This document shows, in pieces, positions 6,109 to 53,554 of a stretch of 64,000 nt of DNA. The stretch is taken from assembly GCF_002067135.1 (NCBI RefSeq), contig NZ_CP020105.1, positions 186,001 to 250,000 of the forward strand, given 5' to 3'. The DNA is from Spirosoma rigui. GTDB lineage: Bacteria > Bacteroidota > Bacteroidia > Cytophagales > Spirosomataceae. Below the pieces are notes generated by a model. The model did not search any database and was not told the origin of the DNA. It saw only the letters and a list, made by a program, of their open reading frames with translations. Numbering within the stretch: position 1 is the first letter of the stretch; each line of letters begins with the position of its first letter. The position numbers and the translations under genes were made by a program.

Positions 6109-6152
6109 CTGATACTGGTCAGGTTGGCAACGCCCTCCGCAGGCTTGTTTTG
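6109..6152 (+). promoter_or_regulatory. FixK/FNR-like box and -7 element for the membrane protein-USP pair
   Basis: The palindrome CTGATACTGGTCAG (6109-6122) is followed after 22 bases by TTGTTTTG (6145-6152), a near match to the Bacteroidota -7 consensus. The same box, spacing and -7 element recur across the window (see findings). Activation by the receiver-CRP regulator at 30467-31528 is inferred. Confidence 0.72.
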
Positions 6153-6172
6153 TAGCATAATCCAAACAGGAA

Positions 6173-6511
6173 ATGCTCATGGCAACGCTCAGTCAATCAA
6201 CCCCCAGTTATACCATTCCCTCAGGCAGCAGCTGGTTAGCGGCCTATAACGCCTTCATCGAAAAAGCGGAGTTCACCCGCGTTGGCTGGGCCGCTACGGC
6301 CATTATCGTGCAGGGCTGCATCCTGACGCCCGCCTTTCTGCTCGTCATGTTCACCTTTGGCGGGGGCGACTGGCAACTGCTGACGGCGAACCTCAGCTTC
6401 TTTCTCGTCCTCGTTCCGGTACTGTCGGCCCTGCCGGTAAAATACATCATCCCGGCTTTTGCGTTCAGCACCGTACTCCACCTCACGCTGATCGTCATGG
6501 ATCTGCTGTAA
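6173..6511 (+). CDS. hypothetical three-helix membrane protein
   Basis: A 112-residue protein (second possible ATG at 6179) with a polar N-terminus of about 35 residues and three hydrophobic segments (about 40-62, 68-85 and 90-111). No known family is recognised. It sits behind a FixK-like box promoter and 22 bases before a universal stress protein gene, so it is probably co-induced with that gene. Function unknown. Confidence 0.7.
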   Translation: MLMATLSQSTPSYTIPSGSSWLAAYNAFIEKAEFTRVGWAATAIIVQGCILTPAFLLVMFTFGGGDWQLLTANLSFFLVLVPVLSALPVKYIIPAFAFSTVLHLTLIVMDLL

Positions 6512-6533
6512 GAACCCACTAACCGCTACCCGT

Positions 6534-7355
6534 ATGAAAACCATCGTTGCGGCTACCGACTTTTCGGCACATGCCAACCAGGCTACCCACGTGGCTATGC
6601 AACTGGCCCGTACCCAGAAAGCGACCCTCATTCTGGTCCATGTGTTTCATTTCTGGCCTACCAACCCGGCCGAAACCGGGCGTGACTTCCCGCTCAGCGC
6701 CCAGGCAATGCGTACCGAGAGTCAGCAGGCGCTGAAGAAGCTGGCCCACGATCTGCACCAGCGGTACGGGGCGGAGACACCAATCCATTGTATTACCAAA
6801 GAGGGGTATGCGATCCCGTCCATCCGCGAAGTCACCGCCGACGTGCGGGCTGACCTGCTCATTATGTCGACCGTGGGTACATCGCCCCAGAGCGCTCAGT
6901 TGATGGGCAGTATTGCGACGGGCATGGTTGCCGAAACGACCGTTCCGCTGCTGCTGATACCCCCTTCGGCCCACTATGCAAGCATCCGGAACGTAGTGCT
7001 GGGCGTGGACCTCGACACCCCGCCCAACGTGGTCGCGCTGGATACCGCACTGCGGTTTGCGCGGCAGTTCAAATGCGTCGTTAACGTCTTGTGCATCCAC
7101 GATAACCCTACCGACCCGGAGGTCCACGCCAAAGCGGAGCACATCCGGCGGCTAATGACGCCGGTACCCCACACGCTGACCATCCAGCCCGGCGAGGATG
7201 TGTACGAGACACTGCTCACGTTTGCCCACGCCAACAAAGCCGACCTGATTATGATGCTGCCCCAGCCGCACGGCTGGTTCAGACGCCTGTTTGCGGATGG
7301 CGAAACCGAGCGTATGGCACGCCTGACGGATTTGCCGCTGCTGGCCATCGTTTAA
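6534..7355 (+). CDS. universal stress protein, tandem UspA domains
   Basis: A 273-residue cytoplasmic protein made of two UspA folds (about 1-145 and 146-273). The N-terminal strand MKTIVAATDFS is diagnostic. The nucleotide-binding loop of the first domain is partly kept (VGTS...MGS near residues 115-128), while the second domain has MMLPQPHGWFRRLF and has lost the usual G-2x-G-9x-G(S/T) signature, so ATP binding may be reduced. It follows a small membrane protein in what is likely a two-gene operon under a FixK-like box. It is one of six full-length tandem USPs in the window. Confidence 0.92.
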   Translation: MKTIVAATDFSAHANQATHVAMQLARTQKATLILVHVFHFWPTNPAETGRDFPLSAQAMRTESQQALKKLAHDLHQRYGAETPIHCITKEGYAIPSIREVTADVRADLLIMSTVGTSPQSAQLMGSIATGMVAETTVPLLLIPPSAHYASIRNVVLGVDLDTPPNVVALDTALRFARQFKCVVNVLCIHDNPTDPEVHAKAEHIRRLMTPVPHTLTIQPGEDVYETLLTFAHANKADLIMMLPQPHGWFRRLFADGETERMARLTDLPLLAIV

Positions 7356-7368
7356 TAGCCCCGATATA

Positions 7369-7414
7369 CTGACGCCGTCGCCAAACCTAGTAGCGTTTAA
7401 CGACGGCGTCAGTG
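7369..7414. terminator. hairpin between USP gene and kinase pseudogene
   Basis: A 13-base perfect inverted repeat (7369-7381 with 7402-7414) separates the converging USP gene and the histidine kinase remnant. No long T-run follows on either strand, so terminator activity is likely but not certain. Confidence 0.5.
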
Positions 7415-7474
7415 TTATGTTATGTTGAAACAGTCCTACAAAACTGTGTTTCCCTCCGGGCCACTCGCGATGGG

Positions 7475-8573: not shown

Positions 8574-9941
8574 TCACACCGTACCGGAGAACAGTCGCTG
8601 GGGTGAACCCGACTGCGTGGCCAGATACCGGTCGAACACCATGCAGATTGTACGTACGAACGGACGGCCTTCGGGACGAACCCAGAGCGTCGTCTCGTCG
8701 TAATCGATCAGGCCATCGGCCACCAGCTCGTCGAGTCGGGGCGTTAGCCTGTCCCACTCGTCGTCGGTCCAGTCGCTGATCGACCAGCTCGTCCGGAAGC
8801 GGCACATGATATCCAGGATCAGCCGCCGAACCAAAGTATCATCGTCGGTGAGCAGGTGACCGCGCAGGACGGGCATCTGGCCCGAAAACACGCGCTGTTG
8901 ATACGTACCAAGGTCTTTCTCGTTCTGCATGAACGCCGTGCCAATGTCGCTGATAGCCGACACGCCCAGCCCGATTAGGACATCGGTACGGGTGGTTGTG
9001 TAGCCCATGAAATTCCGGTGCAGACGACCTCGTTCACTGGCTTTGTAGAGCGAGTCGTGCGGCAGGGCGAAATGATCCATCCCGATTTCGGTATAGCCGC
9101 CCGCTTCGAGTAGCGCGCGTCCCGTTTCGTAGAGGGCCCGTTTCTGACCGGCGGTGGGCAGGTCGTTGTCGGCAAAGCCGCGCTGGCCCGTTCCCTTCAC
9201 CCAGGGGACGTGGGCGTAGGAATAGAACGCGATGCGTTCAGGCTGGAGAAGCCGCGTTTGGGCAATGGTTTCCTGAATAGAGCTGATCTGCTGGAACGGC
9301 AGACCAAATACCAGATCATGGCTGACGGACGTATACCCGATCTCCCGCGCCCAGCGAGTGACGCGCTCCACGTTGGCAAACGGCTGGTGGCGGTGGATGG
9401 CCCGCTGCACAACGGGGTCGTAATCCTGCACCCCGAAGCTGACGCGCCGGAAGCCGAAGTCGTACAGCGTTTGCAGGTGCGCCCGGGTTGTGTTGTTGGG
9501 ATGTCCTTCCCAGCCAAAATCAATTGTTTCGGCAACGTCGGCCCAGCGGAAAATACCCGTCAGCAGCCGTCGCAGTTCGGCCGGAGCGAAAAAACTGGGT
9601 GTGCCGCCCCCCAGGTGCAGCTCGGCAATACGGGGGCGCTCGGGAAGCCAGATGCAGTACGTTTCCCACTCCTCCAGCAGCGCGTCGATGTAGGGTTCTT
9701 CGACACTGTGATTTCGTGTAATGCGCTTGTTACAGCCGCAAAACGTGCAGAGGCTCTCGCAGAACGGCAGGTGGATATAGACGCTGATGCCATCCGAGTA
9801 GTTGCTGTTGGCAAAAGCCGTTGTCAGGCGTTGCTTCCAGCCGCGCAGGCTGAAGGCGGTGGTGTTCCAGAAGGGTACGGGCGGATAGCTGGTGTAGCGC
9901 GGTCCGGCCACGTTATATTTGTCAATCAGCGAACGAGTCAT
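8574..9941 (-). CDS. hemN: oxygen-independent coproporphyrinogen III oxidase
   Basis: Radical SAM enzyme of 455 residues that oxidatively decarboxylates coproporphyrinogen III to protoporphyrinogen IX without O2. The cluster motif is CESLCTFCGC (Cys61, Cys65, Cys68), preceded by the typical N-terminus DKYNVAGPRYTSYP; LHLGGGTPSFF follows. Length fits HemN (about 450-460). It is divergent from ccoI. This fits heme supply for cbb3 oxidase at low oxygen. A FixK-like box lies in the shared upstream region, but its spacing matches a ccoI promoter; for hemN only a weak GAACTTTG element (minus strand, 9982-9989) without a well-placed box is visible. Confidence 0.95.
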   Translation of the reverse strand: MTRSLIDKYNVAGPRYTSYPPVPFWNTTAFSLRGWKQRLTTAFANSNYSDGISVYIHLPFCESLCTFCGCNKRITRNHSVEEPYIDALLEEWETYCIWLPERPRIAELHLGGGTPSFFAPAELRRLLTGIFRWADVAETIDFGWEGHPNNTTRAHLQTLYDFGFRRVSFGVQDYDPVVQRAIHRHQPFANVERVTRWAREIGYTSVSHDLVFGLPFQQISSIQETIAQTRLLQPERIAFYSYAHVPWVKGTGQRGFADNDLPTAGQKRALYETGRALLEAGGYTEIGMDHFALPHDSLYKASERGRLHRNFMGYTTTRTDVLIGLGVSAISDIGTAFMQNEKDLGTYQQRVFSGQMPVLRGHLLTDDDTLVRRLILDIMCRFRTSWSISDWTDDEWDRLTPRLDELVADGLIDYDETTLWVRPEGRPFVRTICMVFDRYLATQSGSPQRLFSGTV

Positions 9942-10033
9942 AGAGCCAGCCGGACCGGTTTCGAAGGATGGTCAGGCCGGGCAAAGTTCGGCGCAAAGGC
10001 CGGCCGGAACCCGTGCCAGAATCAACCCCGCAG

Positions 10034-10077
10034 CTGATTTATATCAGCCGATACCAGCGCCCACGGCTGGATTTTTG
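10034..10077 (+). promoter_or_regulatory. FixK/FNR-like box and -7 element for ccoI
   Basis: Perfect palindrome CTGATTTATATCAG (10034-10047), 22 bases, then GATTTTTG (10070-10077). The start codon at 10096 lies just behind the expected transcription start, which supports that start over an upstream in-frame ATG at 9919. Confidence 0.78.
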
Positions 10078-19116: not shown

Positions 19117-19160
19117 CAAATGTAACCCACCCCACAGAACCCTTCCCTGACCTTCGTCAG
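19117..19160 (-). promoter_or_regulatory. FixK/FNR-like box and -7 element for the divergent small gene
   Basis: On the minus strand, palindrome CTGACGAAGGTCAG (19147-19160) is followed after 22 bases by TACATTTG (19117-19124), a perfect TAnnTTTG element. Confidence 0.8.
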
Positions 19161-19194
19161 CCCATCGTCTGACGTTAATCATCCGCCGGCGCAC

Positions 19195-19208
19195 CTGAAT
19201 TTAATCAG
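19195..19208. promoter_or_regulatory. additional FixK/FNR-like box
   Basis: Palindrome CTGAATTTAATCAG lies between the two divergent promoters. No -7 element stands at the 22-base spacing on either strand, so it could be an auxiliary or repressing site. Confidence 0.5.
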
Positions 19209-19216
19209 GTACCTCC

Positions 19217-19260
19217 CTGACCAAACTCATCGGTCACGCCCGGCAGGAGCCTCACTTTTG
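19217..19260 (+). promoter_or_regulatory. FixK/FNR-like box and -7 element for the cbb3 operon
   Basis: CTGACCAAACTCAT (19217-19230) followed after 22 bases by CACTTTTG (19253-19260). The left half-site is perfect, the right one matches at TCA. The same sequence CTGACCAAACTC is used at 38668. Confidence 0.75.
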
Positions 19261-21728: not shown

Positions 21729-21828
21729 GGTAGAGCCGCCACCCCTTGCGTCTCGGCTGCCGGATGGTTTTGTTGAGCCACTAGCCGGAGAGATGCAACG
21801 GGTGGCGCCCCAACACAACTAAAAAATC

Positions 21829-21999
21829 ATGTTCAAGCAATTCATAACAGCAATCCCCGGGGCCGACCGCTACATGATTGGCTCTTTCCTGACCTTCTTC
21901 CTCTTTTTCGTACTGGTGGGACTCTACCTGTGGCTGGCCGACAAGAGCCACATTCAGCAGATGAGCCGCCTACCCTTCGATGATTCATCCACCGATTAA
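21829..21999 (+). CDS. ccoQ: cbb3 oxidase small subunit CcoQ-like
   Basis: A 56-residue protein with one membrane helix (FLTFFLFFVLVGLYLWLAD, about 22-40) and a short polar tail. Size, topology and position between ccoO and ccoP identify it as the CcoQ/FixQ-type subunit, which stabilises CcoP in the complex. The 100 bases between ccoNO and this gene hold nothing recognised. Confidence 0.75.
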   Translation: MFKQFITAIPGADRYMIGSFLTFFLFFVLVGLYLWLADKSHIQQMSRLPFDDSSTD

Positions 22000-25745: not shown

Positions 25746-25789
25746 GAAAGGTACCTGAACACCGCCGTCCGGACCGTGATACGGGTCAG
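25746..25789 (-). promoter_or_regulatory. FixK/FNR-like box and -7 element for the DUF2892 gene
   Basis: Minus strand: CTGACCCGTATCAC (25776-25789), 22 bases, TACCTTTC (25746-25753). One outer box position deviates. It may also influence the P-type ATPase gene on the other side, for which no -7 element at the right distance was found. Confidence 0.65.
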
Positions 25790-25848
25790 GCCGGCCGATG
25801 ATTTCCCTCAACGCTGACACCGGACACGCACAAAACCACACCACACGT

Positions 25849-28734: not shown

Positions 28735-28778
28735 TAAAAGTGCTTCTTTAACCAGCCGAAACAACTGATGTACGTCAG
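28735..28778 (-). promoter_or_regulatory. FixK/FNR-like box and -7 element for the thioredoxin-like gene
   Basis: Minus strand: perfect palindrome CTGACGTACATCAG (28765-28778), 22 bases, CACTTTTA (28735-28742). It also lies about 100 bases upstream of the kinase-regulator pair and could feed back on it. Confidence 0.78.
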
Positions 28779-28872
28779 GCAACGGCCTGATTATCGACCG
28801 GTTTCTGCCCGATTCACTGTACCTTGGCGGACGGACAGATCCGTATGCCGGCTACGCCAACCTTTTCTGTTT

Positions 28873-30489
28873 ATGATGACCGACCTGTATTCCAATGCCT
28901 TAACCGAACTGCTCATCGAGAAGAGTGATGACTTTATCGGTATTTATGATCTGGAAGACGAGCGGTTCGTTCGGATTAATAAGGCGGGTGTCAGGATGCT
29001 GGGCTTCTCCTCCGAGCAGGCTCTGCTGGACGACCCCATCCGGTCCCGCTCCCTGCGTACTCAGCCGCTGGAAGGTGAGCACCGGACCAGCCTGATCGAG
29101 CGGCTCATCCGGGCGGGCCAGCACGAGGAAACGGCTCAGATTGGCCGGCAGAACGGGCAGTCATTCTGGGGTCAGCTCATCATGAGCGCCTTCACGGCCC
29201 ATGACCGGTCCTACGCCCTCATCCGGCTTATCGACCAGGGGCGGCTCCACCAGGCCGAGCGAGACCTGGAGCACAGCGTCCGGCGGTACGAAGCTATTTT
29301 CTCCAATGCCACCATCGGCATCGTCGTCTGCGACGCGCGGGGCCAGATCGTATCTGTCAACCAGCTGGCCGAGCACCTCTTCGGCTACGCCCCGGGCGAG
29401 TTGCTCTCGCTGACCATTGAACGGCTGGTTCCTACCGCCGTCAGCAGCTATCACGAAAAGCTCCGCCAGTCGTTCAATGCCCACCCCCAGGTGCGGGCCA
29501 TGGGCCACAACCGAGACCTGCACGCCCAGCGCAAAGACGGGTCGGTGTTTCCGGTGGAGATCAGCTTGAGCTATTTCCAGCTGGAAGAGGAGCTGTACGT
29601 AGTGGCTTACATCATTGATATCACGTTTAAGAAAGAAGCCGAGCGGCAGCTGCTGGCCCACCGCGACCACATTGAGCGGCTCAATGCCGAGCTGGAACAG
29701 AAAGTGGCCGACCGCACCCACGCGCTGATGAACACCCTCGACCAGCTGGAGCAGTCGAAAGACGAGCTGGCCCGCGCGCTCGAAGCCGAGCGGGAGCTAG
29801 GAGAACTGAAATCCCGCTTCGTCGCTATGGCGTCGCACGAGTTTCGCACGCCCCTCACGGCCGTGCTGACCTCCGCTACGCTGATCGAGAAATATACCCT
29901 GGGCGACCAGCAGGAGAAGCGCCAGAAGCACATCGACCGCATCCGGTCGTCGGTCAATCATCTCAACGACATCCTCGAAGAGTTTCTGTCGGTAGGGCGG
30001 CTCGAAGAAGGCAAGATCGACGCCAACCCCTCGCGGGTCGATATTAGTCAGCTGGTGACCGAAACCGTTGGCGACATGCTGGGCATGCTGAAACCGCAGC
30101 AAACTATCCAGACCGAACTGGCCTGCAGCCAGCCCATCTGGATCGACCCGTCACTGCTGCGCAAGATTTTGGTTAACCTCCTGTCCAATGCCGTCAAGTA
30201 CTCCGGGCCGGGCTCGGTGGTGACCGTCCGGGCCGCCTGCACCGGGGGGCAACTGGCGCTCGCCATTACCGACCAGGGTATCGGCATCAGCAAAGACGAT
30301 CAGGAGCATCTGTTCGAGCGTTTTTTCCGGGCCAAGAACGTAACCAACATCGCCGGTACCGGGCTGGGGCTGCACATCGTAGGCCGGTACGTCGAACTGA
30401 TGCACGGTCAGGTATCCTTACAAAGTGAGTTGAATCTGGGCACAACCGTAACACTTATCCTTCCCTATGAAGACCATCCTCTTGATTGA
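28873..30489 (+). CDS. PAS-PAS sensor histidine kinase, candidate FixL-like oxygen sensor
   Basis: A 538-residue kinase without membrane helices. Domains: PAS1 (about 15-125), PAS2 (about 138-255), coiled coil (262-315), HisKA with phospho-acceptor His322 in SHEFRTPL, and HATPase with N-box NLLSNAVKY, G1 DQGIGIS and G2 GTGLGLHIV. PAS2 aligns without gaps to my recollection of the FixL heme-PAS segment: the proximal heme ligand corresponds to His194 (SYHEK) and the distal arginine to Arg214 (GHNRD). This makes oxygen sensing plausible, though many non-heme PAS domains also carry a histidine there. The gene overlaps the regulator gene by 23 bases, so they form a two-component pair. The ATG at 28873 is chosen over 28768, which sits inside the divergent box. 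A weak TACCTTGG lies at 28820-28827. Confidence 0.88.
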   Translation: MMTDLYSNALTELLIEKSDDFIGIYDLEDERFVRINKAGVRMLGFSSEQALLDDPIRSRSLRTQPLEGEHRTSLIERLIRAGQHEETAQIGRQNGQSFWGQLIMSAFTAHDRSYALIRLIDQGRLHQAERDLEHSVRRYEAIFSNATIGIVVCDARGQIVSVNQLAEHLFGYAPGELLSLTIERLVPTAVSSYHEKLRQSFNAHPQVRAMGHNRDLHAQRKDGSVFPVEISLSYFQLEEELYVVAYIIDITFKKEAERQLLAHRDHIERLNAELEQKVADRTHALMNTLDQLEQSKDELARALEAERELGELKSRFVAMASHEFRTPLTAVLTSATLIEKYTLGDQQEKRQKHIDRIRSSVNHLNDILEEFLSVGRLEEGKIDANPSRVDISQLVTETVGDMLGMLKPQQTIQTELACSQPIWIDPSLLRKILVNLLSNAVKYSGPGSVVTVRAACTGGQLALAITDQGIGISKDDQEHLFERFFRAKNVTNIAGTGLGLHIVGRYVELMHGQVSLQSELNLGTTVTLILPYEDHPLD

Positions 30490-31528
30490 AGACAACGAGG
30501 CCATCCGCGAGAATACCGCTGAGATCCTGGAACTGACAGGATACACCGTCCACACGGCAGAAAACGGAAAAGTCGGCGTCGAAAAAGCCCTCGCCCACAA
30601 ACCGGATCTGGTTATCTGCGACATTATGATGCCCGTGCTGGATGGCTACGGCGTCCTGCACATTTTCAACAAAAACCCGCTCCTCGCGGGGGTACCGTTC
30701 ATTTTTCTGACGGCTAAAACCGAACGGACGGACTTCCGCAAGGGCATGGAGCTGGGTGCCGATGATTACCTGACCAAGCCCTTCGACGAGTCGGAGCTGC
30801 TCAGTGCCATCGAAGGACGCCTGAACCGATTTCAGCACCTGGCCGGGCCGCAGCCCGAATCCAGCTACAACCTGCAGCAGGATGGACTCGACCAGTTTCT
30901 GGACCACGCCAAACAGGCCGGCAACCTGGAAAGCCTGTCGGCCGACCGGAAGACGCATCCCGTTCGCAAAAAACAGTACGTCTACTCGGAGGGCGACGAA
31001 CCGACGCGCCTGTATTTTCTCAAAACGGGCAAGGTGAAAACGGTGCGGACCAATACCGACGGCAAGGAATTTATTACCGGCATCTACGGCCCCGGCGAAT
31101 TCTTCGGCTACTACGCCCTGCTTGAACACAGCGACTACACCGACTCGGCGGTGACCCTGGACGATTCGGAGCTGATTTACATACCCAAGGACGATTTCCA
31201 CCAGCTGCTGCTGGCCAACCCGGTCGTGGGCCAGCAGTTCATCAAACTCCTGGCCGGGCGCGTGGGCGAGCGCGAAGAGCAGTTGCTCGGTATGGCCTAC
31301 AGCTCCCTCCGCCGGCGCGTGGCCGACACGCTGCTGCGGCTGAACGGGCAGCACCCCGGCGAAACCATCCAGCTCTCGCGCGACGACCTGGCCGCCATGA
31401 TCGGTACGGCGACCGAGTCACTCATCCGGACGTTGAGCGAATTCAAGCAGGACGGTCTGATCGAGATGATGGCACCGGGCGGCATCCGGGTTCTCCAGCC
31501 CGACAGGCTACGCCGGGCCAACTGGTGA
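30467..31528 (+). CDS. receiver-CRP fusion transcription regulator (FixJ receiver + FixK-like module)
   Basis: A 353-residue response regulator. Residues 1-125 are a CheY-like receiver with acidic pocket Glu8-Asp9, phospho-site Asp52, Thr82 and Lys104. Residues about 165-280 are a cyclic-nucleotide-binding beta-roll, but the Glu and Arg that hold cAMP in CRP are not present (GYYALLEHSDYTDSA), and the four FNR cluster cysteines are absent. Residues about 284-353 form a CRP-type winged helix; the recognition helix TATESLIRTL keeps Glu317 and Arg321, the residues that contact the TGA core in CRP/FNR proteins. Activation by phosphorylation from the overlapping kinase gene is therefore likely. It is the best candidate to bind the repeated CTGA-N6-TCAG boxes. 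Confidence 0.92.
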   Translation: MKTILLIEDNEAIRENTAEILELTGYTVHTAENGKVGVEKALAHKPDLVICDIMMPVLDGYGVLHIFNKNPLLAGVPFIFLTAKTERTDFRKGMELGADDYLTKPFDESELLSAIEGRLNRFQHLAGPQPESSYNLQQDGLDQFLDHAKQAGNLESLSADRKTHPVRKKQYVYSEGDEPTRLYFLKTGKVKTVRTNTDGKEFITGIYGPGEFFGYYALLEHSDYTDSAVTLDDSELIYIPKDDFHQLLLANPVVGQQFIKLLAGRVGEREEQLLGMAYSSLRRRVADTLLRLNGQHPGETIQLSRDDLAAMIGTATESLIRTLSEFKQDGLIEMMAPGGIRVLQPDRLRRANW

Positions 31529-31529
31529 G

Positions 31530-31594
31530 CTGACGACAATCAGGCGGGGCACTAAGCCCGGTCACCCGTTCTGGCGGGGGTCGGGCTACTTTTA
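31530..31594 (+). promoter_or_regulatory. FixK/FNR-like boxes and -7 element for the small USP-like gene
   Basis: Perfect box CTGACGACAATCAG (31530-31543) just after the regulator stop, and a weaker CTAAGCCCGGTCAC (31552-31565) 21 bases before TACTTTTA (31587-31594). The -7 element ends on an ATG at 31594, so that ATG cannot be the start codon. Confidence 0.65.
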
Positions 31595-32757: not shown

Positions 32758-32823
32758 CTGACCAAGCTCATCGAAGCGGGTAATGGTACTCAGACCACAC
32801 CGCCGGAGCGGGGTCTACTTTTG
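32758..32823 (+). promoter_or_regulatory. promoter of ppsA with degenerate boxes
   Basis: A perfect -7 element TACTTTTG (32816-32823) has, at the standard 22-base spacing, only a half-conserved box GTAATGGTACTCAG (32780-32793). A better left half-site, CTGACCAAGCTCAT (32758-32771), lies 22 bases further up and nearly repeats the cbb3 operon box. Confidence 0.55.
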
Positions 32824-35253: not shown

Positions 35254-35321
35254 CCCGTTGATACCCGCTGGCAGGTGCCCCACCAACACCGGGGCAACGT
35301 CAGTTCGGGGGTTGAGCAATA

Positions 35322-35355
35322 TCATGGGCCGGGGGCGGTGAAACCAGCACCTTTG
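35322..35355 (+). promoter_or_regulatory. weak box and -7 candidate before ldhA
   Basis: TTGAGCAATATCAT (35322-35335) resembles an FNR box; CACCTTTG (35348-35355) resembles a -7 element, but only 12 bases separate them, against 22 elsewhere. Weak; ldhA may simply be read from the ppsA promoter. Confidence 0.25.
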
Positions 35356-38579: not shown

Positions 38580-38623
38580 CAAAGCAACCCGACGGCCGCG
38601 CCCTATCCACTGATTCATACTGC
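38580..38623 (-). promoter_or_regulatory. promoter of the USP gene with half-conserved box
   Basis: Minus strand: GCAGTATGAATCAG (38610-38623; proximal-to-distal half ATCAG conserved), 22 bases, TTGCTTTG (38580-38587). The spacing is exact although one half-site is degenerate. Confidence 0.55.
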
Positions 38624-38631
38624 CTGACCGG

Positions 38632-38659
38632 CTGACTTTCATCAGCTGACGCAAATCAG
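38632..38659. promoter_or_regulatory. two adjacent perfect FixK/FNR-like boxes
   Basis: CTGACTTTCATCAG (38632-38645) and CTGACGCAAATCAG (38646-38659) stand back to back between the two divergent promoters. Neither has a -7 element at the standard spacing, so they may be upstream (class I-like) or cooperative sites. Confidence 0.7.
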
Positions 38660-38667
38660 TCCCGCAG

Positions 38668-38711
38668 CTGACCAAACTCCTGACTACGCTCTCCCGTTCC
38701 GGCTAGCTTTG
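38668..38711 (+). promoter_or_regulatory. FixK/FNR-like box and -7 element for the flavin-binding protein gene
   Basis: CTGACCAAACTCCT (38668-38681), 22 bases, TAGCTTTG (38704-38711, perfect TAnnTTTG). The left half-site is perfect. Confidence 0.7.
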
Positions 38712-44072: not shown

Positions 44073-44924
44073 TCAGTTGGGCTTGGGAATGATCAGCATC
44101 GGGTGTTTGGTGGTGAGGGCGAGCTGGCGGATCAGGCTTTTATGGAAGATCTTTTCCACGAAGCCCCGGTCGCGGTGGGCCAGCACGATGGCGTCGGGAC
44201 GGTGGCTGCGCACGTAGGACTCGATGCCCTCGGGAACCGAGTCGAAGGTGAGGTGCCGGAAAATGATGCGTTCGGGGGCGTAGGCGTTCTCGAACGATTC
44301 GATCAGCGTTTCGGCTACGGTAAACTCCTCGTCGGCCAGCGCCGATACGTGGACCACTTCGACCCGGGCGCGCAGCCGTTCGCCCAGGTTCATGACCTGG
44401 TTGATGCAGCTGATCTCCCTGCCTTCCATATCGGCAAAATACACGAACCGCCGGAGCGAACTGAGCGATACGGCAGCGGGCAGTATCCAGACCGGCTGAC
44501 TGGCGCGCTGCGCTACGGCGGTGGTCACCGACCCCAGGAGCCGGTCCCAGGCGCTGGCCGCTCCTACCGCGCCCATGATGATGAAGCTGGCCCGTTCGGT
44601 ATCGGCAATGTCCAGGATGCAGTCGGCGGGCTGGCCCACCACCAGGCGGGTGCTCACGGGAACGCTGGAGAAGCCGTTCTCGCGCTGGTACACGGCGGTC
44701 TGCTCATGGAAGCCGCGCAGGGCCTCCTCCAGTTGCGCCTGCAGCGTATCGCTCCAGGCCGACAGTTCCACCACGGGTACGTTGAAGGTGGGCACCGGGG
44801 GCGCGGGCTGTACAATGTGTAGCAGCAGCAGCCGGGCGTTCATGCGGTGCGCCAGTTCCAGCCCGAAATGGGTGGTGTTGTACGAGAGCGTACTAAAATC
44901 GACGGGTATCAGAATCGTTTTCAT
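44073..44924 (-). CDS. universal stress protein, tandem UspA domains, degenerate second site
   Basis: A 283-residue protein starting MKTILIPVDFSTLSYNTTHF. The first unit ends with IIMGAVGAASAWDRLLGSVTTAVAQRA, which keeps a G...GS pattern. The second ends with VLAHRDRGFVEKIFHKSLIRQLA, lacking the usual glycines. Divergent from hsp20, both with boxes. (Motifs shortened: key residues Gly-Ala-x-Gly and Gly-Ser.). Confidence 0.92.
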   Translation of the reverse strand: MKTILIPVDFSTLSYNTTHFGLELAHRMNARLLLLHIVQPAPPVPTFNVPVVELSAWSDTLQAQLEEALRGFHEQTAVYQRENGFSSVPVSTRLVVGQPADCILDIADTERASFIIMGAVGAASAWDRLLGSVTTAVAQRASQPVWILPAAVSLSSLRRFVYFADMEGREISCINQVMNLGERLRARVEVVHVSALADEEFTVAETLIESFENAYAPERIIFRHLTFDSVPEGIESYVRSHRPDAIVLAHRDRGFVEKIFHKSLIRQLALTTKHPMLIIPKPN

Positions 44925-44944: not shown

Positions 44945-44988
44945 TAAAAGTGCCACCCGGCCCGGCGGAACTCCCTGCGCCCGGTCAC
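44945..44988 (-). promoter_or_regulatory. FixK/FNR-like box and -7 element for the USP gene
   Basis: Minus strand: GTGACCGGGCGCAG (44975-44988), 22 bases, CACTTTTA (44945-44952). The box deviates at one inner and one outer position. Confidence 0.65.
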
Positions 44989-44996
44989 CCGCCGGG

Positions 44997-45010
44997 CTGA
45001 TTTCTTTCAG
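44997..45010. promoter_or_regulatory. central FixK/FNR-like box between USP and hsp20
   Basis: CTGATTTCTTTCAG, extended to GGCTGATTTCTTTCAGCC, lies almost midway between the two divergent promoters with no own -7 element. Confidence 0.6.
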
Positions 45011-45018
45011 CCGCCGTC

Positions 45019-45062
45019 CTGCCCGGCGTCACGGCAGCGCCCGCCCGGCCCGCTTAGGTTTG
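45019..45062 (+). promoter_or_regulatory. FixK/FNR-like box and -7 element for hsp20
   Basis: CTGCCCGGCGTCAC (45019-45032), 22 bases, TAGGTTTG (45055-45062, perfect -7 element). The arrangement mirrors the USP promoter on the other side. Confidence 0.65.
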
Positions 45063-45126: not shown

Positions 45127-45567
45127 ATGGAAACTACCTTCCCAACCGCAGAAAAAGTAGGGCGTACCCTGTCGACGACCCTGATTGACCCACTGGTCGA
45201 CGCCTTCACTACGTTCTTCGATTCGCCGTCGGGGCTGAGCGTTCCGAAGGCCAACGTTGCCGAGAAGGCCAACGAGATTCAGATCGAGCTGGCCGCGCCC
45301 GGCTTGCAGAAAGAGGACTTCACCATCCGGGCCGATGGCAACCTGCTCACCGTTAGTGCGCAGAAAGAAACCAGCACCACCGACGAGGACGATACGAAAC
45401 GGTACCGTCGGGAATACAACTACACGTCGTTTTCGCGCTCGTTTGCACTGCCCGACACTGCCAAAATCGATCAGACGAAGGCGACCTACAAGGATGGTAT
45501 TCTGTCCATCACGGTTGCCAAAGCCGATGCGCCCCGCAAGGCGAGCCTGGCTATTCCGGTCGACTGA
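45127..45567 (+). CDS. small heat shock protein Hsp20 (alpha-crystallin family)
   Basis: A 146-residue ATP-independent chaperone. Alpha-crystallin domain about 42-135 (NVAEKANEIQIELAAPG, then DGNLLTVSAQKE and the late GILSITVAKAD), with a C-terminal IPV motif (LAIPVD) for oligomer contacts. It holds unfolding proteins during stress. In Mycobacterium the homologue HspX is a main member of the hypoxia regulon; here it also has a regulon-type promoter, shared back to back with a USP. A terminator follows. Confidence 0.93.
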   Translation: METTFPTAEKVGRTLSTTLIDPLVDAFTTFFDSPSGLSVPKANVAEKANEIQIELAAPGLQKEDFTIRADGNLLTVSAQKETSTTDEDDTKRYRREYNYTSFSRSFALPDTAKIDQTKATYKDGILSITVAKADAPRKASLAIPVD

Positions 45568-45632: not shown

Positions 45633-45666
45633 GTGCTCATCAAACGCCGGTCAATCATCGGATTAC

Positions 45667-45710
45667 CTGATGCAGATCAGGACGCGGGCGGGCGCTGTGT
45701 TCCATTTTTA
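45667..45710 (+). promoter_or_regulatory. FixK/FNR-like box and -7 element for the YD-repeat lipoprotein
   Basis: Perfect palindrome CTGATGCAGATCAG (45667-45680), 22 bases, CATTTTTA (45703-45710). Confidence 0.7.
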
Positions 45711-48624: not shown

Positions 48625-48733
48625 GGGAAGCGACGGAAACGGGTGGAGTATACCGTCCGCAAAGGTGTTACCAGCGCCGGAATCCGGGCGTGATGCGCTT
48701 CAGCTAACCATCTGAATTCTATCAGGGCGGTCA

Positions 48734-48777
48734 CTGACGGGGGTCATAAGCCGGGTCGCATCGACCGTCCACTTTTG
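48734..48777 (+). promoter_or_regulatory. FixK/FNR-like box and -7 element for the FixH-like/USP operon
   Basis: CTGACGGGGGTCAT (48734-48747), 22 bases, CACTTTTG (48770-48777). Confidence 0.75.
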
Positions 48778-49108: not shown

Positions 49109-49978
49109 ATGAAAAAAATCCTCGTGCTGACCGATTTCTCGGAAGCGTCCCGCCATGCACTCCAGTTCGCCCGGTCGTTCTTCAGCGATACGGTCGCCGA
49201 ATTTCATTTGCTCTGCGTCTATCCCGTCGAATCGGACGGATTTTACAGTCAGCACCACGTAGCCCAGACGGCCCGCACTGCCTTTGGCGAGCAGTTGCTG
49301 CACATGGTAACCGAATTGCGCCGGGATACCGCCAGCGACTGGCACACGTTCCGGTCGTCGGCCCGGCCGGGTAATCTGGTCGAGGTGGTCCGGCAGTACG
49401 TGGAGCAGGAGGTCTACGACTACGTCGTGATCGGCGCGAAGAAAGACGGCACCAACGAGCTGTTCGGCAACAGCGCCACCGCCCTCATTCGGCAGATCAC
49501 CGCCAACGTCCTGATCGTTCCCATCGACACGAAGCCCGGCGCGGTACGGCAGGTGGTAGTCGCCACCGATTTCTCGACCCTCAAAAACTGCAAACTGCTG
49601 TGCCCCGTCAAGGATGTCGTCACCCTCAAAGACGCGGCCCTGACCCTGCTGACGATCGACGTACCAGGCAAAAAGGTCACTCAGACCGACCGTGAGTCGC
49701 GCATCCGGCAGTTTCTGTGGCCCGTTGCGCCGACCGTCACGCGGTTGCAGGCGCCCACCGTCCGGCAAGGCATCGACGCCTACCTGGCGGGCCATCCGGT
49801 CGATCTGCTGGTGACCATTCCCAAACACAAAGGCTGGTCCGACGCCCTGACGGGCAACAGCGTAACGCGCTGGCTGGCCTATACGCCCCCCGTACCGCTG
49901 CTTACGCTCTACGACGACGGCACCATCGACCAGCCCCGCCTGATCGATGACCTGTCGAATATCGACTACGCGCTGTAA
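49109..49978 (+). CDS. universal stress protein, tandem UspA domains
   Basis: A 289-residue protein starting MKKILVLTDFSEASRHALQFA. First unit keeps IGAKKDGTNELFGNSATALIRQ near residue 110; the second unit (TIPKHKGWSDALTGNSVTRWLAY) has lost most of the ATP-binding glycines. Adjacent to a close paralogue; both start with LTDFS[EA]ASRHA. Confidence 0.9.
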   Translation: MKKILVLTDFSEASRHALQFARSFFSDTVAEFHLLCVYPVESDGFYSQHHVAQTARTAFGEQLLHMVTELRRDTASDWHTFRSSARPGNLVEVVRQYVEQEVYDYVVIGAKKDGTNELFGNSATALIRQITANVLIVPIDTKPGAVRQVVVATDFSTLKNCKLLCPVKDVVTLKDAALTLLTIDVPGKKVTQTDRESRIRQFLWPVAPTVTRLQAPTVRQGIDAYLAGHPVDLLVTIPKHKGWSDALTGNSVTRWLAYTPPVPLLTLYDDGTIDQPRLIDDLSNIDYAL

Positions 49979-50013: not shown

Positions 50014-50898
50014 ATGTACAAGATCCTGTTATTGACCGATTTTTCGGCGGCTTCCCGACACGCCATCCGCTTCGCCCAGGCCCTCTTCGACGATATCGCC
50101 ACGGAATTCTGCCTGCTCAACGCCTTTCCCGTCGAACCGGAGGTAGGCTTCAGCGGGGCGTTTCTGCTGGCCGAACAGCGCCAGTTGGCCGAGCAGGAAA
50201 TGGCTCACCTGGAACACGCCATCCGGCAGCAGCCCGTTCCGGCCTACCATACGTACCGCAGCCTGGTCATGGTGGGAAGTCCCGTCAGCGCCGTTAAAAC
50301 GCTGCTGGGCGAAGAGGTCTTCGACCTGGTCGTGGTGGGGGCTGTGGGTACGGGCCACAGCGAACTCTTCGGCAGCGTCGCCACCGACATGATCCGGTCG
50401 GTGACGACGAACGTACTGGTTGTACCCGCATCGGCCCCCATCCGCCCCATTAACCAGGTGGTGTTGGCAACGGACTACCGTTCGGTAAAAGACACGGGTA
50501 CGTTTGCGCTGCTCACCGACCTGGCCAGCCGGAAGGCGGCCCGGCTTACGCTGCTGACCATCGAAAACCCGAAGGAACCCGGCAGCCACGCGGCCGAACT
50601 GAGCCGCCACTACGTGCTGAACGCCTTTGACACCATCCAGGTCGATACGTACACCATCCACGACGACGATGTGCTGCATGGCATCAACGCCTATCTGGAT
50701 CTGCACCCGGTCGACCTGTTCGTGATGGTACCGCACCACAAGGGCTTCTTCGATCTGCTGCGGAACGCCAGCCTGACCCGCCCACTGGCCTATCGTCCAC
50801 GGGTGCCGCTCCTGACGCTGTTCGATGAAAAAGCCGCCCCCGCCCCGCCAACACCATCGGCGGGCGTGAACAACACGCCCTACCCCACCTATAACTAG
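50014..50898 (+). CDS. universal stress protein, tandem UspA domains, paralogue
   Basis: A 294-residue paralogue of the preceding protein (MYKILLLTDFSAASRHAIRFAQ). First unit has VGAVGTGHSELFGSVATDMIRS, which preserves a G-x-G...GS site; the second has VPHHKGFFDLLRNASLTRPLAY without it. Third gene of the box-controlled operon. (Motifs quoted in part.). Confidence 0.9.
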   Translation: MYKILLLTDFSAASRHAIRFAQALFDDIATEFCLLNAFPVEPEVGFSGAFLLAEQRQLAEQEMAHLEHAIRQQPVPAYHTYRSLVMVGSPVSAVKTLLGEEVFDLVVVGAVGTGHSELFGSVATDMIRSVTTNVLVVPASAPIRPINQVVLATDYRSVKDTGTFALLTDLASRKAARLTLLTIENPKEPGSHAAELSRHYVLNAFDTIQVDTYTIHDDDVLHGINAYLDLHPVDLFVMVPHHKGFFDLLRNASLTRPLAYRPRVPLLTLFDEKAAPAPPTPSAGVNNTPYPTYN

Positions 50899-51508: not shown

Positions 51509-51570
51509 AACCCCTCTCCCAGCGGGAGAGGGGTTGGGGTGAGGGTTTCGGGGAGGGGCACGCGCCCCTA
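51509..51570 (+). repeat. right copy of an inverted repeat element with hairpin
   Basis: Contains the hairpin AACCCCTCTCCC / GGGAGAGGGGTT (51509-51535), then GGGGTGAGGG and a GGGGCACGCGCCCC palindrome running into the stop of the converging USP gene. Similar CCCTCTCCC...GGGAGAGGG...GGGGTGAGGG repeats are scattered in many bacterial genomes, from memory. Confidence 0.6.
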
Positions 51571-52434
51571 TAAAACCCCTTCCAGAATAACCATCGATAC
51601 CGGTTCGGTATGAAGCGGCAGGGTCAGTACCGCCATGGATGCGTGGTTCGCTACTGTCTCGGCCACGCTGCCCTGCAGCAGGTGACGGATACCCCGCCGG
51701 CCGTGCGTACCCAGCACGATCAGATCGGCCTGTATGTCGGTCGCAAACGTCAGCAGGCCCGTTTCAACGTCGTAATCGTCCTGCTGGTTGAGGGTACACA
51801 TACCCAGGCCGTAGTTCGTTACGAAGGTCTGCATCCGCTCGCGAACCTGGTGGCTGGGTACAAAATGGCTCAGCGTATTCACGAAGAGCAGATGCACCAG
51901 CGGATAGTCGAAGCCATCCAGCAGGGTTTTCAGGAAATCCATCGACGACGCGTAGTGGTCGTTGAAGTCCGACGCAAAGACGACGGTTTTCAGATCGAGG
52001 TAGCCGGGCGGGTTTTTCAGAACCAGCACCGGCATTTTAGCGTGCCGGATCAGGTGTTCGGCGTTGGAGCCCAGCAGGCTTCCGCGAATGCCGCTGGTTC
52101 CCGTCGACGACATCACCAGCAGGTCGGCACTGGCAAACCGCCTGTCGTCCAGGATAGCCACCGGTTCGGCCTCATTGAGGACGTGCGTGTGCACCCGCAG
52201 GCCGCTCAAAAAAGGCAGGAGCAGCAAATCGTCATAGGCTTCCTCAACCAGGCCCAGCGCGTCCCGGTAATGCGTACCGGCGTCCTGGAGCCGTACCGAG
52301 TAACCGGGCAGGACCGTAGGTAAGACGTGAATGACGTGCAGATCGGCGTTGAAGAGTCGGCACAGCTGAGCCGCTACCGACACCGCTTTCGTTGCTTCGT
52401 CGGAAAAGTCGGTGGGAACGATGATTTTTTTCAT
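51568..52434 (-). CDS. universal stress protein, tandem UspA domains, canonical ATP motif
   Basis: A 288-residue protein starting MKKIIVPTDFSDEATKAV. Both units keep the nucleotide-binding pattern: SSTGTSGIRGSLLGSNAEHL and GTHGRRGIRHLLQGSVAETV (the latter a full G-2x-G-9x-GS). It is most like the USP at 37726-38553. It follows pfkB by 25 bases and is probably co-transcribed with it from the box promoter at 53459-53502; pfkB-usp pairs also occur in the mycobacterial DosR regulon. Confidence 0.93.
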   Translation of the reverse strand: MKKIIVPTDFSDEATKAVSVAAQLCRLFNADLHVIHVLPTVLPGYSVRLQDAGTHYRDALGLVEEAYDDLLLLPFLSGLRVHTHVLNEAEPVAILDDRRFASADLLVMSSTGTSGIRGSLLGSNAEHLIRHAKMPVLVLKNPPGYLDLKTVVFASDFNDHYASSMDFLKTLLDGFDYPLVHLLFVNTLSHFVPSHQVRERMQTFVTNYGLGMCTLNQQDDYDVETGLLTFATDIQADLIVLGTHGRRGIRHLLQGSVAETVANHASMAVLTLPLHTEPVSMVILEGVL

Positions 52435-52459
52435 GGGTAACCGATGGTTTATAAACGAA

Positions 52460-53413
52460 TCAGGGGTTGTCAGGTGTCAGGACCGGATGCTGCTGGTTTA
52501 TCCAGTCGAGCAGTCGATTGACAGCATCGGGGTGGAACAGTTCAGTACCCGCGTTCATGGTCGCGGCCGTACCGCAGGCAACGCCCAGCCGAATGGCGTC
52601 GGCGTAGGACCGGCCCTGATCGAGGGCATACACGATACCCCCGACCAGGCTGTCGCCCGCCCCGACGGTACTCACTTTTTTGACCGGTGGCGTCGGCACA
52701 AAGTCGGTCCCGTCGGCGGTCACCAGTACGGCCCCCCGCGCCCCCAGCGATACCACCACGACGTCGCAGCTTCCCGCCTGGATCAGCGTATGGGCCGCTT
52801 CGTGCACCTGATCGGCTTCGAGCCGGTCGACCCCGATGAGCGACGCCAGCTCGCCGAGGTTGGGCTTGACCATAAACACACCCGCGTCGAGTGCCTGCCG
52901 CAGCGCATCGCCGGCCGTGTCGACCACCAGCCGGATGTGCTGCGCTTTGGCGAAACGGGCAATCTGGGCGTAGAAATCGGCGGGCAGGCCGGGGGGCAGG
53001 CTCCCGCTGGCGACGAGGTACTGAATCGGCCGGGGCAGCGCCCGGAGATGAGCCAGGCAGGCCGTAGCTTCGGCGGGACTCAGCGTGGGGCCGGGTGTGC
53101 CGAACCGGAACTGCTGGTTGGGAATGGTTTCGGTCACCACGAAACACTCGCGGGTAAGCCCGTCGATACCAATGATTTCGTAGTCGATGCCTTCTTTCTC
53201 CACCAGCTCCTGCAGCGTGAGGCCCGCCGTGCCACCCGACGTGAAAACGGCCCGGGTTTCCCCACCCAGCCGATGGATGGCTTTGGACACGTTGATCCCG
53301 CCCCCGCCCGCGTCGTACCGGGGTTGCGAGCAGTGCAGCTTGTGTTCGGGAATCAGCCGGTCGATGGTCATGCTGATATCCACGGCGGGGTTGAGGGTGA
53401 GCGTATAGATCAT
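52460..53413 (-). CDS. pfkB: PfkB-type hexose-phosphate kinase (6-phosphofructokinase II/1-phosphofructokinase)
   Basis: A 317-residue ribokinase-fold sugar kinase. Motifs: N-terminal TLNPAVDISMTID, sugar-binding GGGGINVSKAIHRLGG, and the ATP/anion-hole motif VGAGDSLVGGI with catalytic Asp near 255. These match 6-phosphofructokinase II (PfkB) best; 1-phosphofructokinase or tagatose-6-phosphate kinase cannot be excluded. No PTS genes are near, which favours PfkB. The ATG at 53413 is chosen because the -7 element lies at 53459-53466. Confidence 0.87.
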   Translation of the reverse strand: MIYTLTLNPAVDISMTIDRLIPEHKLHCSQPRYDAGGGGINVSKAIHRLGGETRAVFTSGGTAGLTLQELVEKEGIDYEIIGIDGLTRECFVVTETIPNQQFRFGTPGPTLSPAEATACLAHLRALPRPIQYLVASGSLPPGLPADFYAQIARFAKAQHIRLVVDTAGDALRQALDAGVFMVKPNLGELASLIGVDRLEADQVHEAAHTLIQAGSCDVVVVSLGARGAVLVTADGTDFVPTPPVKKVSTVGAGDSLVGGIVYALDQGRSYADAIRLGVACGTAATMNAGTELFHPDAVNRLLDWINQQHPVLTPDNP

Positions 53414-53458
53414 ACAACGGGGGGCAAATAACCAGCCGGGTAGCCGGGTAGTTGCCCG

Positions 53459-53502
53459 TAAAAGTGGGCTTTTTGCGCCCCGTCGCCTATGACGCAGATC
53501 GC
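53459..53502 (-). promoter_or_regulatory. FixK/FNR-like box and -7 element for pfkB-usp
   Basis: Minus strand: GCGATCTGCGTCAT (53489-53502), 22 bases, CACTTTTA (53459-53466). It stands 8 bases from the adhP box, giving two boxes between divergent metabolic genes. Confidence 0.62.
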
Positions 53503-53510
53503 ACCCGTAC

Positions 53511-53554
53511 CTGATCCGTATCAGGCGCACTCCCGGGCCGGTACGCTACGTTTG
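53511..53554 (+). promoter_or_regulatory. FixK/FNR-like box and -7 element for adhP
   Basis: Perfect palindrome CTGATCCGTATCAG (53511-53524), 22 bases, TACGTTTG (53547-53554), a perfect TAnnTTTG. Confidence 0.83.

What the first reader, a model, noticed from the sequence alone, without database searches (positions are those of the whole stretch)
6109..53554. A regulon of about fifteen promoters with one rigid box-spacer-minus7 architecture
Reading intergenic regions on both strands shows the palindrome CTGA(T/C)NNNN(A/G)TCAG, or a recognisable variant, exactly 22 bases before a TAnnTTTG-like -7 element at: 6109, 10034, 19217, 38668, 45019, 45667, 48734 and 53511 (plus strand) and 19147, 25776, 28765, 38610, 44975 and 53489 (minus strand). 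A degenerate box fits at 32780 (ppsA), and 31552 has 21 bases. Identical spacing at unrelated genes is hard to get by chance. The box centre falls near -41, as for class II CRP/FNR activators, and several -7 elements begin with C instead of T, which suggests weak basal promoters needing an activator. The box equals the FNR/FixK site with outer T/A changed to C/G. I am not aware of this motif being described for Bacteroidota.
Basis: partly seen in the sequence, partly recalled or inferred. Interest (0 to 1): 0.95.

Follow-up and report, generated by a model that had tools for sequence, protein, structure and literature searches.

The report
One-protein low-oxygen switch in Bacteroidota
Eighteen predicted promoters of respiration and stress genes in one stretch of this genome share a single rigid DNA layout, and a regulator encoded among them that fuses two normally separate proteins is likely to switch them on when a neighbouring predicted sensor finds oxygen running low.

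Summary
A CTGAY-N4-RTCAG-like box precedes a YAnnTTTR element by exactly 22 bp far more often than by any other distance. The composite occurs 18 times in the 5.83-Mb genome, 15 in this window, against 1 for the reversed pattern: a local regulon. Its likely regulator lies inside it: 30467-31528 fuses a receiver domain to a CRP-type DNA-binding protein and is the only protein over the HTH_Crp_2 cut-off. The adjacent kinase has a FixL-like PAS domain keeping the heme-His and distal-Arg columns. The pair, and the same spacing near it, recur across Bacteroidota. Best reading: a FixL-FixJ-FixK low-oxygen circuit with FixJ and FixK collapsed into one protein. Against: family genomes without the fusion also carry the composite (5 of 8), and at class level the box is not exclusive to this regulator. 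Oxygen control, binding and transcription starts are untested.

The parts
30467..31528 (+). Likely regulator: receiver (REC) + cyclic-nucleotide-binding-like domain + CRP-type winged helix in one 353-aa protein (P0001)
   Evidence: Pfam Response_reg 3.8e-28, cNMP_binding 8e-24, HTH_Crp_2 4.1e-17; only HTH_Crp_2 protein over cut-off in the genome; E8, D9, D52, K104 invariant in the 19 aligned sequences
28768..30489 (+). Predicted heme-PAS histidine kinase (real start probably an ATG near 28873), overlapping the regulator gene by 23 bp
   Evidence: HisKA, HATPase_c, PAS; PAS aligns with FixL 1d06 (1e-10) keeping the heme-His and distal-Arg columns
6087..6152 (+). Promoter: upstream half-box, box 6109, N22, TTGTTTTG; drives orf112 (6173) and USP 6534-7355
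10012..10077 (+). Promoter: upstream half-box, box 10034, N22, GATTTTTG; drives a CcoI-like heavy-metal P-type ATPase (ATG 10096)
19117..19182 (-). Promoter: boxes 19169 and 19147, N22, TACATTTG; drives a 139-aa protein 18666-19085
   Evidence: (0 mismatches)
19195..19260 (+). Promoter: boxes 19195 and 19217, N22, CACTTTTG; drives the cbb3 oxidase operon ccoS-NO-P-G-H and a DsbD_2 gene (19282-25504)
25746..25811 (-). Promoter: upstream half-box, box 25776, N22, TACCTTTC; drives a 74-aa ORF starting 25720
28735..28800 (-). Promoter: boxes 28787 and 28765, N22, CACTTTTA; drives a 112-aa ORF 28360-28698 (weak thioredoxin match, below cut-off), divergent from the kinase gene
31530..31594 (+). Variant promoter: exact box 31530, degenerate box 31552, N21, TACTTTTA; drives orf147 (ATG probably 31621)
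32758..32823 (+). Promoter: boxes 32758 and 32780, N22, TACTTTTG; drives ppsA (PEP synthase)
35290..35355 (+).
38580..38645 (-). Promoter: boxes 38632 and 38610 (6/10), N22, TTGCTTTG; drives USP 37726-38553
38646..38711 (+). Promoter: boxes 38646 and 38668, N22, TAGCTTTG; drives a pyridoxamine-phosphate-oxidase-like protein (ATG 38739)
44945..45010 (-). Promoter: boxes 44997 and 44975, N22, CACTTTTA; drives USP 44073-44924; box 44997 shared with the next entry
44997..45062 (+). Promoter: boxes 44997 and 45019, N22, TAGGTTTG; drives Hsp20 45127-45567
45645..45710 (+). Promoter: upstream half-box, box 45667, N22, CATTTTTA; drives a 175-aa ORF from 45715 (weakest gene assignment: only 4 bp after the element)
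48660..48725 (-).
48712..48777 (+). Promoter: boxes 48712 and 48734, N22, CACTTTTG; drives an 80-aa ORF (48809) and USPs 49109-49978 and 50014-50898
   Evidence: (0 mismatches)
53459..53524 (-). Promoter: boxes 53511 and 53489, N22, CACTTTTA; drives PfkB (ATG 53413) and USP 51568-52434
53489..53554 (+). Promoter: boxes 53489 and 53511, N22, TACGTTTG; drives a zinc alcohol dehydrogenase (ATG 53585)

Best explanation
Eighteen predicted promoters in a 48-kb block share one layout, a CTGAY-N4-RTCAG-like box 22 bp (21 in one case) before a YAnnTTTR-like element with a second, often half-kept box 22 bp further upstream, and they are likely switched on by the block's own fused regulator (receiver domain plus CRP-type DNA-binding protein, 30467-31528) when the neighbouring predicted heme-PAS kinase senses low oxygen. 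Shown: the layout, its excess over controls, its confinement to this block, its recurrence around this regulator gene in relatives, the fused domain architecture, and the paired kinase with the FixL heme-His and distal-Arg columns. Inferred: low oxygen frees the kinase; it phosphorylates D52 of the receiver; the CRP-type part then binds the box centred near -41, taking the place of the -33 element as a class II activator, with a second dimer at about -63; transcription rises of the cbb3 oxidase and its copper ATPase, six universal stress proteins, Hsp20, PEP synthase, PfkB, dehydrogenases and small proteins. In effect FixL-FixJ-FixK with FixJ and FixK made one protein.
For: Spacing peak at 22 in the window. 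Composite: 18 in the genome, 15 in the window, reversed control 1; binomial P about 3e-27 under uniform placement (one of the 15, 38616-, is a register echo). REC-CRP fusion plus kinase in the middle of the block; the only protein over the HTH_Crp_2 cut-off. Twenty 20-kb neighbourhoods picked by this gene in 20 of the 53 family genomes that have it: box-to-YANNTTTG gap 22 (14-mer) has 20 hits, other gaps from 5 to 44 have 0-2, reversed box at most 2 at any gap; box-box distance 22 has 29 pairs, other distances from 10 to 59 at most 5. In 22 fusion loci from other Bacteroidota the same gap has 29 hits, the other gaps printed (10-39) at most 3. A kinase homolog lies beside the regulator in 41 of 42 loci, the exception (L045) starting inside the regulator gene. 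Heme-His column kept in 41 of 42 aligned kinases, the window's own included (L035 doubtfully aligned), distal Arg in 30 of 42. In 32 family genomes 42 of 140 composite matches lie within 25 kb of a REC-CRP gene, at most 1.65 expected; 19 of 32 genomes have one (coordinates). The upstream box appears in columns not used for selection: TGA in 20, 22, 15 and TCA in 23, 21, 22 of 24 sites of the nearest relatives. Genes lowered in a fixK2 mutant of Bradyrhizobium, most with a putative FixK2 box, are of the same kinds (PMC9104804, table passages).
Against: Presence and absence do not track closely: of 61 family genomes, 48 of the 53 with a fusion hit have composite matches, but so do 5 of the 8 without one (G028, G033, G035, G048, G060). 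At class level the box-22-TAnnTTTG unit does not need this regulator: of 158 phylum genomes 24 have the fusion (94 matches, 18 of 24 with any), but 15 same-class genomes without a hit have 42 matches (13 of 15), against 15 in the other 119 (12 of 119); reversed control 5 in all 158 (one search scored only 13 candidates a genome, so distant fusions may be missed). Another CRP-like protein in this genome (G000:C1:2075405) has a PETVSR helix and could bind the same core. The upstream box is not visible in the 68 far_I sites. 13 of 32 family genomes have no composite match near the fusion; at up to 4 mismatches L242, L025 (only 3.2 kb) and L032 of 42 loci had none. The kinase gene itself has no clean promoter of this type. 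Distal Arg is missing in 12 of 42 kinases. The structure model of P0001 is poor (mean pLDDT 59.2). No expression or binding data.
Confidence: 0.75

Rival explanations
1. The boxes are bound by a separate CRP/FNR-type protein (for example the small one at G000:C1:2075405), and the fused regulator is only a neighbour.
For: That protein has an FNR-like PETVSR recognition helix; 5 of 8 family genomes without a fusion hit at 1e-60 have composite matches; box-22-TAnnTTTG sites occur in 13 of 15 same-class genomes without a hit to the fusion at 1e-50.
Against: In this genome the sites cluster around the fusion gene, and none of the 18 composite matches lies near 2075405; 42 of 140 matches in 32 relatives lie within 25 kb of a fusion gene against at most 1.65 expected; the fusion is the only protein over the HTH_Crp_2 cut-off.
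Confidence: 0.15
2. The circuit is right but the signal is not oxygen: the PAS domain senses NO, CO, redox or another ligand.
For: Distal Arg, which favours oxygen in FixL (recalled), is replaced in 12 of 42 kinases; two Winogradskyella loci (L033, L035) have different, longer kinases.
Against: Best PDB matches of the PAS are FixL, with DosP and a multi-sensor kinase also found; heme-His column kept in 41 of 42; target kinds are those of published low-oxygen sets.
Confidence: 0.15
3. Single boxes at -41 do the work and the 22-bp upstream box is a remnant or a site for a different protein (compatible with the main reading otherwise).
For: The upstream box is often half kept and not visible in the 68 far_I sites.
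Confidence: 0.2
4. The spacing is a chance pattern picked out by eye.
For: Several listed boxes are degenerate (6-7 of 10).
Against: Gap scans, shuffles, reversed controls and 42 further loci.
Confidence: 0.01

Closest known systems
FixL-FixJ-FixK (FixK2) cascade of rhizobia and Burkholderia
   Same: Heme-PAS kinase, response regulator, CRP-type DNA-binding step, 14-bp palindrome with a TGA-N6-TCA-like core; genes lowered in a fixK2 mutant, most with a putative FixK2 box, include PNPOx, Hsp20, universal stress protein, ppsA and hemN2 (PMC9104804, passages). [quoted passage not shown]
   Different: FixJ and FixK are two proteins and a transcription step apart there; here receiver and CRP-type output are one protein. 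The FixK2 box is TTGA/C-N6-T/GCAA; here CTGAY-N4-RTCAG, usually in tandem. The promoter has a Bacteroidota-type -7 element.
lxa (low-oxygen-activated) locus of Burkholderia cenocepacia
   Same: One locus with six universal stress proteins and a heat shock protein; a phosphofructokinase (M0311) stands in the same table (its place within the locus is recalled); a related regulator is under FixLJ in B. dolosa (PMC6127331, passages).
   Different: Different phylum; the regulator suggested there is an Anr/FixK-like CRP protein, not a receiver fusion.
DosR dormancy regulon of mycobacteria
   Same: Hypoxia regulon rich in universal stress proteins (six of them: PMC2914252, start of abstract in the search listing) under a two-component system (recalled); pfkB and hspX membership recalled.
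   Different: DosR is a NarL-type regulator with other sites (recalled); no CRP-type output.
CRP/FNR family (FNR, Anr, CRP) class II activators
   Same: cNMP_binding + HTH_Crp_2, palindromic TGA-N6-TCA site near -41.
   Different: N-terminal receiver domain; no FNR cysteines (one Cys in 353 aa, in the receiver); no Arg where CRP has its phosphate-binding Arg (my reading of the 4ev0 alignment; residue role recalled).

Membership tests
FixL-type heme-PAS sensor kinase | PAS domain with proximal heme His (and distal Arg) plus HisKA/HATPase_c | tested here: met
   phmmer to FixL 1d06/1dp6/1xj4 with both columns kept; His in 41 of 42 and Arg in 30 of 42 aligned kinases. Roles of the residues recalled.
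FixL-type heme-PAS sensor kinase | Binds heme and is inhibited by oxygen | not testable with these tools
   Needs protein
FixJ (NarL-type response regulator) | Receiver plus NarL/LuxR-type HTH output | tested here: not met
   Output is cNMP_binding + HTH_Crp_2
FixK | Stand-alone CRP/FNR protein without receiver, made under FixJ control | tested here: not met
   Receiver and CRP domains are one ORF; no other protein over the HTH_Crp_2 cut-off, though two small CRP-like proteins without such a match exist
CRP/FNR superfamily | cNMP_binding-like domain and CRP-type winged helix; palindromic site | tested here: met
   Both domains over Pfam cut-off; site TGAY-N4-RTCA, binding itself inferred
FNR/Anr (Fe-S oxygen sensors) | Conserved cysteines for a 4Fe-4S cluster | tested here: not met
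   Single Cys, C51, in the receiver (sequence)
Class II CRP-dependent promoter | Box centred near -41.5 from a mapped start, activator replacing the -35/-33 element | tested here: inconclusive
   Distance to the -7-like element is fixed; starts not mapped
Low-oxygen locus of the lxa/DosR kind | Cluster of USPs, Hsp20, PfkB and respiratory genes under one regulator | tested here: met
   Gene content; 15 of 18 composite sites in the window; the common regulator is inferred
Low-oxygen locus of the lxa/DosR kind | Induced by low oxygen | not testable with these tools
   No expression data

The most novel reading that the evidence does not exclude
Bacteroidota run their own low-oxygen circuit in which a heme-PAS kinase phosphorylates a receiver-CRP fusion, joining the FixJ and FixK steps in one protein with no intermediate gene. 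In Spirosomataceae and some other families the phosphorylated receivers hold two CRP-type dimers together on boxes exactly two helical turns apart, so that divergent promoters can share the middle box, and the whole regulon sits in one block beside its regulator.
Probability: 0.57. Interest if true: 0.85.

Novelty: new variant of a known kind. Interest (0 to 1): 0.74.

Why it matters
None of my ten paper searches (open-licence library, listings capped) listed a description of this regulator, its site or a FixL-type circuit in Bacteroidota. If right, this gives a sensor, a regulator, a DNA site and a target list for how aerobic Cytophagales, Sphingobacteriales and Flavobacteriales answer falling oxygen, a natural case of a two-step cascade (FixJ to FixK) collapsed into one protein, and a rigid, probably activator-dependent promoter layout for this phylum.

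Tried and rejected
1. Ile/Ser idea: the CRP-type recognition helix has Ile where FNR has Ser in most of the loci whose helix was read (ESLIR, ETAIR and the like), and Ser (ETVSR, ETISR) in four (L027, L028, L034, L047); L030, whose helix was not read, was grouped with these as a Mucilaginibacter. I asked whether this sets the outer base (C for Ile, T for Ser). Not supported: outer left base C in 38 of 68 far_I sites and 3 of 10 far_S sites, the rest of which are spread over A, G and T.
2. Exclusive link of box and fusion at family or phylum level: not supported.
3. The strict pattern CTGAY-N4-RTCAG-N20-24-YANNTTTG genome-wide gave only 2 matches, both in the window; TANNTTTG with gaps 8-38 in 61 genomes gave a weak picture. 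Both are too strict because the nearer box often ends in TCAT and the element often begins with C.
4. The AlphaFold model of P0001 was poor (mean pLDDT 59.2, 19 sequences), so no fold search was made; only its order of strands and helices agrees with receiver, beta-roll and winged helix.
5. A first site-to-gene script placed the -7 element one base off and found almost no sites; corrected. Its gene lists are unaffected.
6. The kinase gene's own promoter: boxes 28765/28787 could serve it, but the nearest -7-like word (TACCTTGG) is 19 bp from the box (sequence); left open.
7. 59 of the 114 sites had no identified target gene, because only homologs of this window's genes were looked for.

Full report
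WHERE IT IS. The window is bases 186001-250000 of a one-contig 5,828,404-bp genome. The named proteins closest to its regulator are from Spirosoma, Fibrisoma, Fibrella, Rudanella and Larkinella, so it is a Spirosomataceae-like member of the Bacteroidota (family name recalled); the species is not told.

THE OBSERVATION. Scanning both strands for boxes of at least 7/10 followed by a full YANNTTTR, the 22-bp gap has 13 hits while every other gap from 8 to 40 has 0-3; with exact boxes it is 4 against none. The window holds 137 boxes with up to two mismatches against 65.6 (sd 7.8) in shuffles. Of the 15 promoters that one search lists, 14 have their element 18-64 bp before an ATG of an open frame; for 45667 it is 4 bp.

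Twenty-two base pairs upstream of the box (start to start) lies another box, often with only its promoter-near half kept. Box pairs of 8/10 or better 22 bp apart occur six times in the window; no other distance up to 60 exceeds three. In two places (44975/44997/45019 and 48690/48712/48734) three boxes at 22-bp steps serve two divergent promoters, the middle one being the upstream box of both; at 53489/53511 each box is upstream of the other promoter. The composite search adds a promoter at 35312 (2-hydroxyacid dehydrogenase) and one at 48690 minus (L,D-transpeptidase), making 18.

LOCAL, NOT GLOBAL. Exact CTGAY-N4-RTCAG occurs 49 times in the genome (reversed pattern 15), nine times in this window (binomial P about 3e-9). 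Of the 40 outside, one (4439052) has a TANNTTTG of 5/6 or better at 22 bp. The composite RTCAG-N8-CTGAY-N4-RTCA-N23-YANNTTTG with up to three mismatches occurs 18 times, 15 in the window, control 1; one of the 15 (38616-) is a register echo inside the 38610-38668 array, so 14 of my 18 promoters come out of this search. The other four (31552 with its 21-bp gap, 32780, 38610- and 44975-) have more mismatches and rest. The three matches outside are at 1584734, 4439022 and 5135410.

THE REGULATOR. In the middle of the block, 30467-31528 encodes Response_reg + cNMP_binding + HTH_Crp_2 in one 353-aa protein. It is the only protein in the genome over the HTH_Crp_2 cut-off; five places match cNMP_binding, two of them small CRP-like proteins without an HTH_Crp_2 match, one of which has an FNR-like PETVSR helix. 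Receiver residues E8, D9, D52 and K104 are invariant in the 19 aligned sequences. The helix GTATESLIRTLSEF aligns its E317 and R321 with Glu and Arg of the CRP-family structure 4ev0, the residues that read TGA in CRP and FNR (recalled). It has one cysteine and so no FNR-type cluster. The 25 NCBIfam families shown for it (of 109) are named receiver regulators or CRP, all below their cut-offs.

THE SENSOR. The kinase gene 28768-30489 overlaps the regulator gene. Its PAS domain finds FixL (1d06, 1e-10; 1dp6; 1xj4) and DosP in the PDB, and the alignment keeps the column of the FixL heme-ligand His and that of the distal Arg (roles recalled). Across 42 aligned kinases, the window's own included, the His is kept in 41 (L035 doubtful) and the Arg in 30.

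COMPARATIVE TEST. (a) Twenty neighbourhoods of 20 kb from 20 of the 53 family genomes with the fusion: box-to-element gap 22 has 20 hits, other gaps from 5 to 44 have 0-2, the reversed box at most 2; box-box distance 22 has 29, others at most 5; 57 other loci (965,770 bp) are flat, at most 2. The regions were placed by the fusion gene, some of them after I had seen nearby composite matches. (b) Twenty-two fusion loci from other Bacteroidota (Mucilaginibacter, Arcticibacter, Sphingobacterium, Flavobacterium, Winogradskyella, Aquimarina, Arenibacter and others), taken from the 80 loci kept before any box search in them: 29 at gap 22, the other gaps printed at most 3. (c) A kinase homolog lies 0-186 bp from the fusion gene in 41 of 42 loci (in L033 only the kinase core matches). 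(d) 114 sites at the fixed gap in the 42 loci against 3-18 at ten control gaps; identified downstream genes include USPs (30 sites), ccoNO (5), 2-hydroxyacid dehydrogenase (5), a radical-SAM gene (3), PNPOx (2) and Hsp20 (1); 59 sites had no identified target. (e) Family-wide, 53 of 61 genomes have composite matches with up to two mismatches, 255 in all against 6 for the reversed control, and 53 of 61 have a fusion hit at 1e-60. In 32 genomes with both, whose matches were printed in full, 42 of 140 matches are within 25 kb of a fusion gene, at most 1.65 expected; 19 of 32 have at least one. (f) In 16 genomes of other families reached through loci, 15 have tandem-type matches; the reversed control has 1.

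RESULTS AGAINST. In the family, 48 of 53 genomes with the fusion have composite matches, but so do 5 of 8 without a hit. In a 158-genome phylum sample the fusion is in 24. The unit TGAY-N4-RTCAT-N22-TANNTTTG has 94 matches in those 24 genomes, but also 42 in 15 same-class genomes without a hit, and 15 in the other 119; reversed control 5 in all. So the box and distance belong to CRP/FNR-type activation in this class more widely, and the fusion is one user of it. The upstream box is strong in the nearest relatives (24 sites) and in the far_S group (10 sites from Arcticibacter, two Mucilaginibacter and a Flavobacterium) but not visible in the far_I group (68 sites, 18 of them from two Winogradskyella loci). 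The idea that the Ile/Ser change in the helix sets the outer base failed.

HOW IT LIKELY WORKS. Low oxygen relieves the heme-PAS kinase (inferred from FixL); phosphate passes to D52 (inferred); the fusion binds the box at about -41 (and a second dimer at about -63 where present), standing where the -33 element would be, and recruits polymerase (inferred from geometry). The targets fit: a high-affinity cbb3 oxidase with its assembly genes and copper ATPase, six USPs, Hsp20, PEP synthase, PfkB, dehydrogenases. Genes lowered in a Bradyrhizobium fixK2 mutant, seen in a table of PMC9104804, include PNPOx, Hsp20, USP, ppsA and hemN2, and the Burkholderia lxa locus has six USPs and a heat shock protein (PMC6127331 passages).

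NOVELTY. Heme-PAS kinases, CRP-type activators at -41 and clustered low-oxygen loci are known. Not found in my searches of an open-licence library (listings; passages of PMC8547461, PMC9104804, PMC4999443, PMC6127331 and PMC9104464) are the receiver-CRP fusion as the working regulator of such a locus, its pairing with a FixL-like kinase across Bacteroidota, its site, and the 22-bp tandem register. The fusion itself is in public databases, mostly named 'response regulator' where named. I call it a new variant of a known kind.

Noticed in passing
window 54711-55526 (+): A gene of the aminoglycoside/hydroxyurea kinase family (PF04655, 1.4e-83) lies 100 bp after the alcohol dehydrogenase; no box with up to 2 mismatches lies between them.
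   Followed up: no
window 8574-9941 (-): A radical-SAM gene (PF04055; HemN-like by my guess) is not among the 18 targets here, but its homologs in L238, L240 and L241 have a site upstream.
   Followed up: partly
window 28360-28698 (-): A 112-aa ORF with a weak thioredoxin match (below cut-off), divergent from the kinase gene, has a homolog in 11 of 20 family neighbourhoods; sites precede it in L225 and L235.
   Followed up: partly
G000:C1:1858487 (L024): A histidine kinase with an N-terminal cyclic-nucleotide-binding-like domain (468-aa open frame).
   Followed up: no
L033 and L035 (Winogradskyella): The receiver-CRP gene sits beside much longer kinases (about 910-1090 aa) without a clear FixL-like PAS alignment, and these loci hold 10 and 8 sites within 21 kb: a possible change of signal.
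   Followed up: no
window 19524-21728 (+): ccoN and ccoO are fused in one ORF (COX1 + FixO, 734 aa).
   Followed up: no
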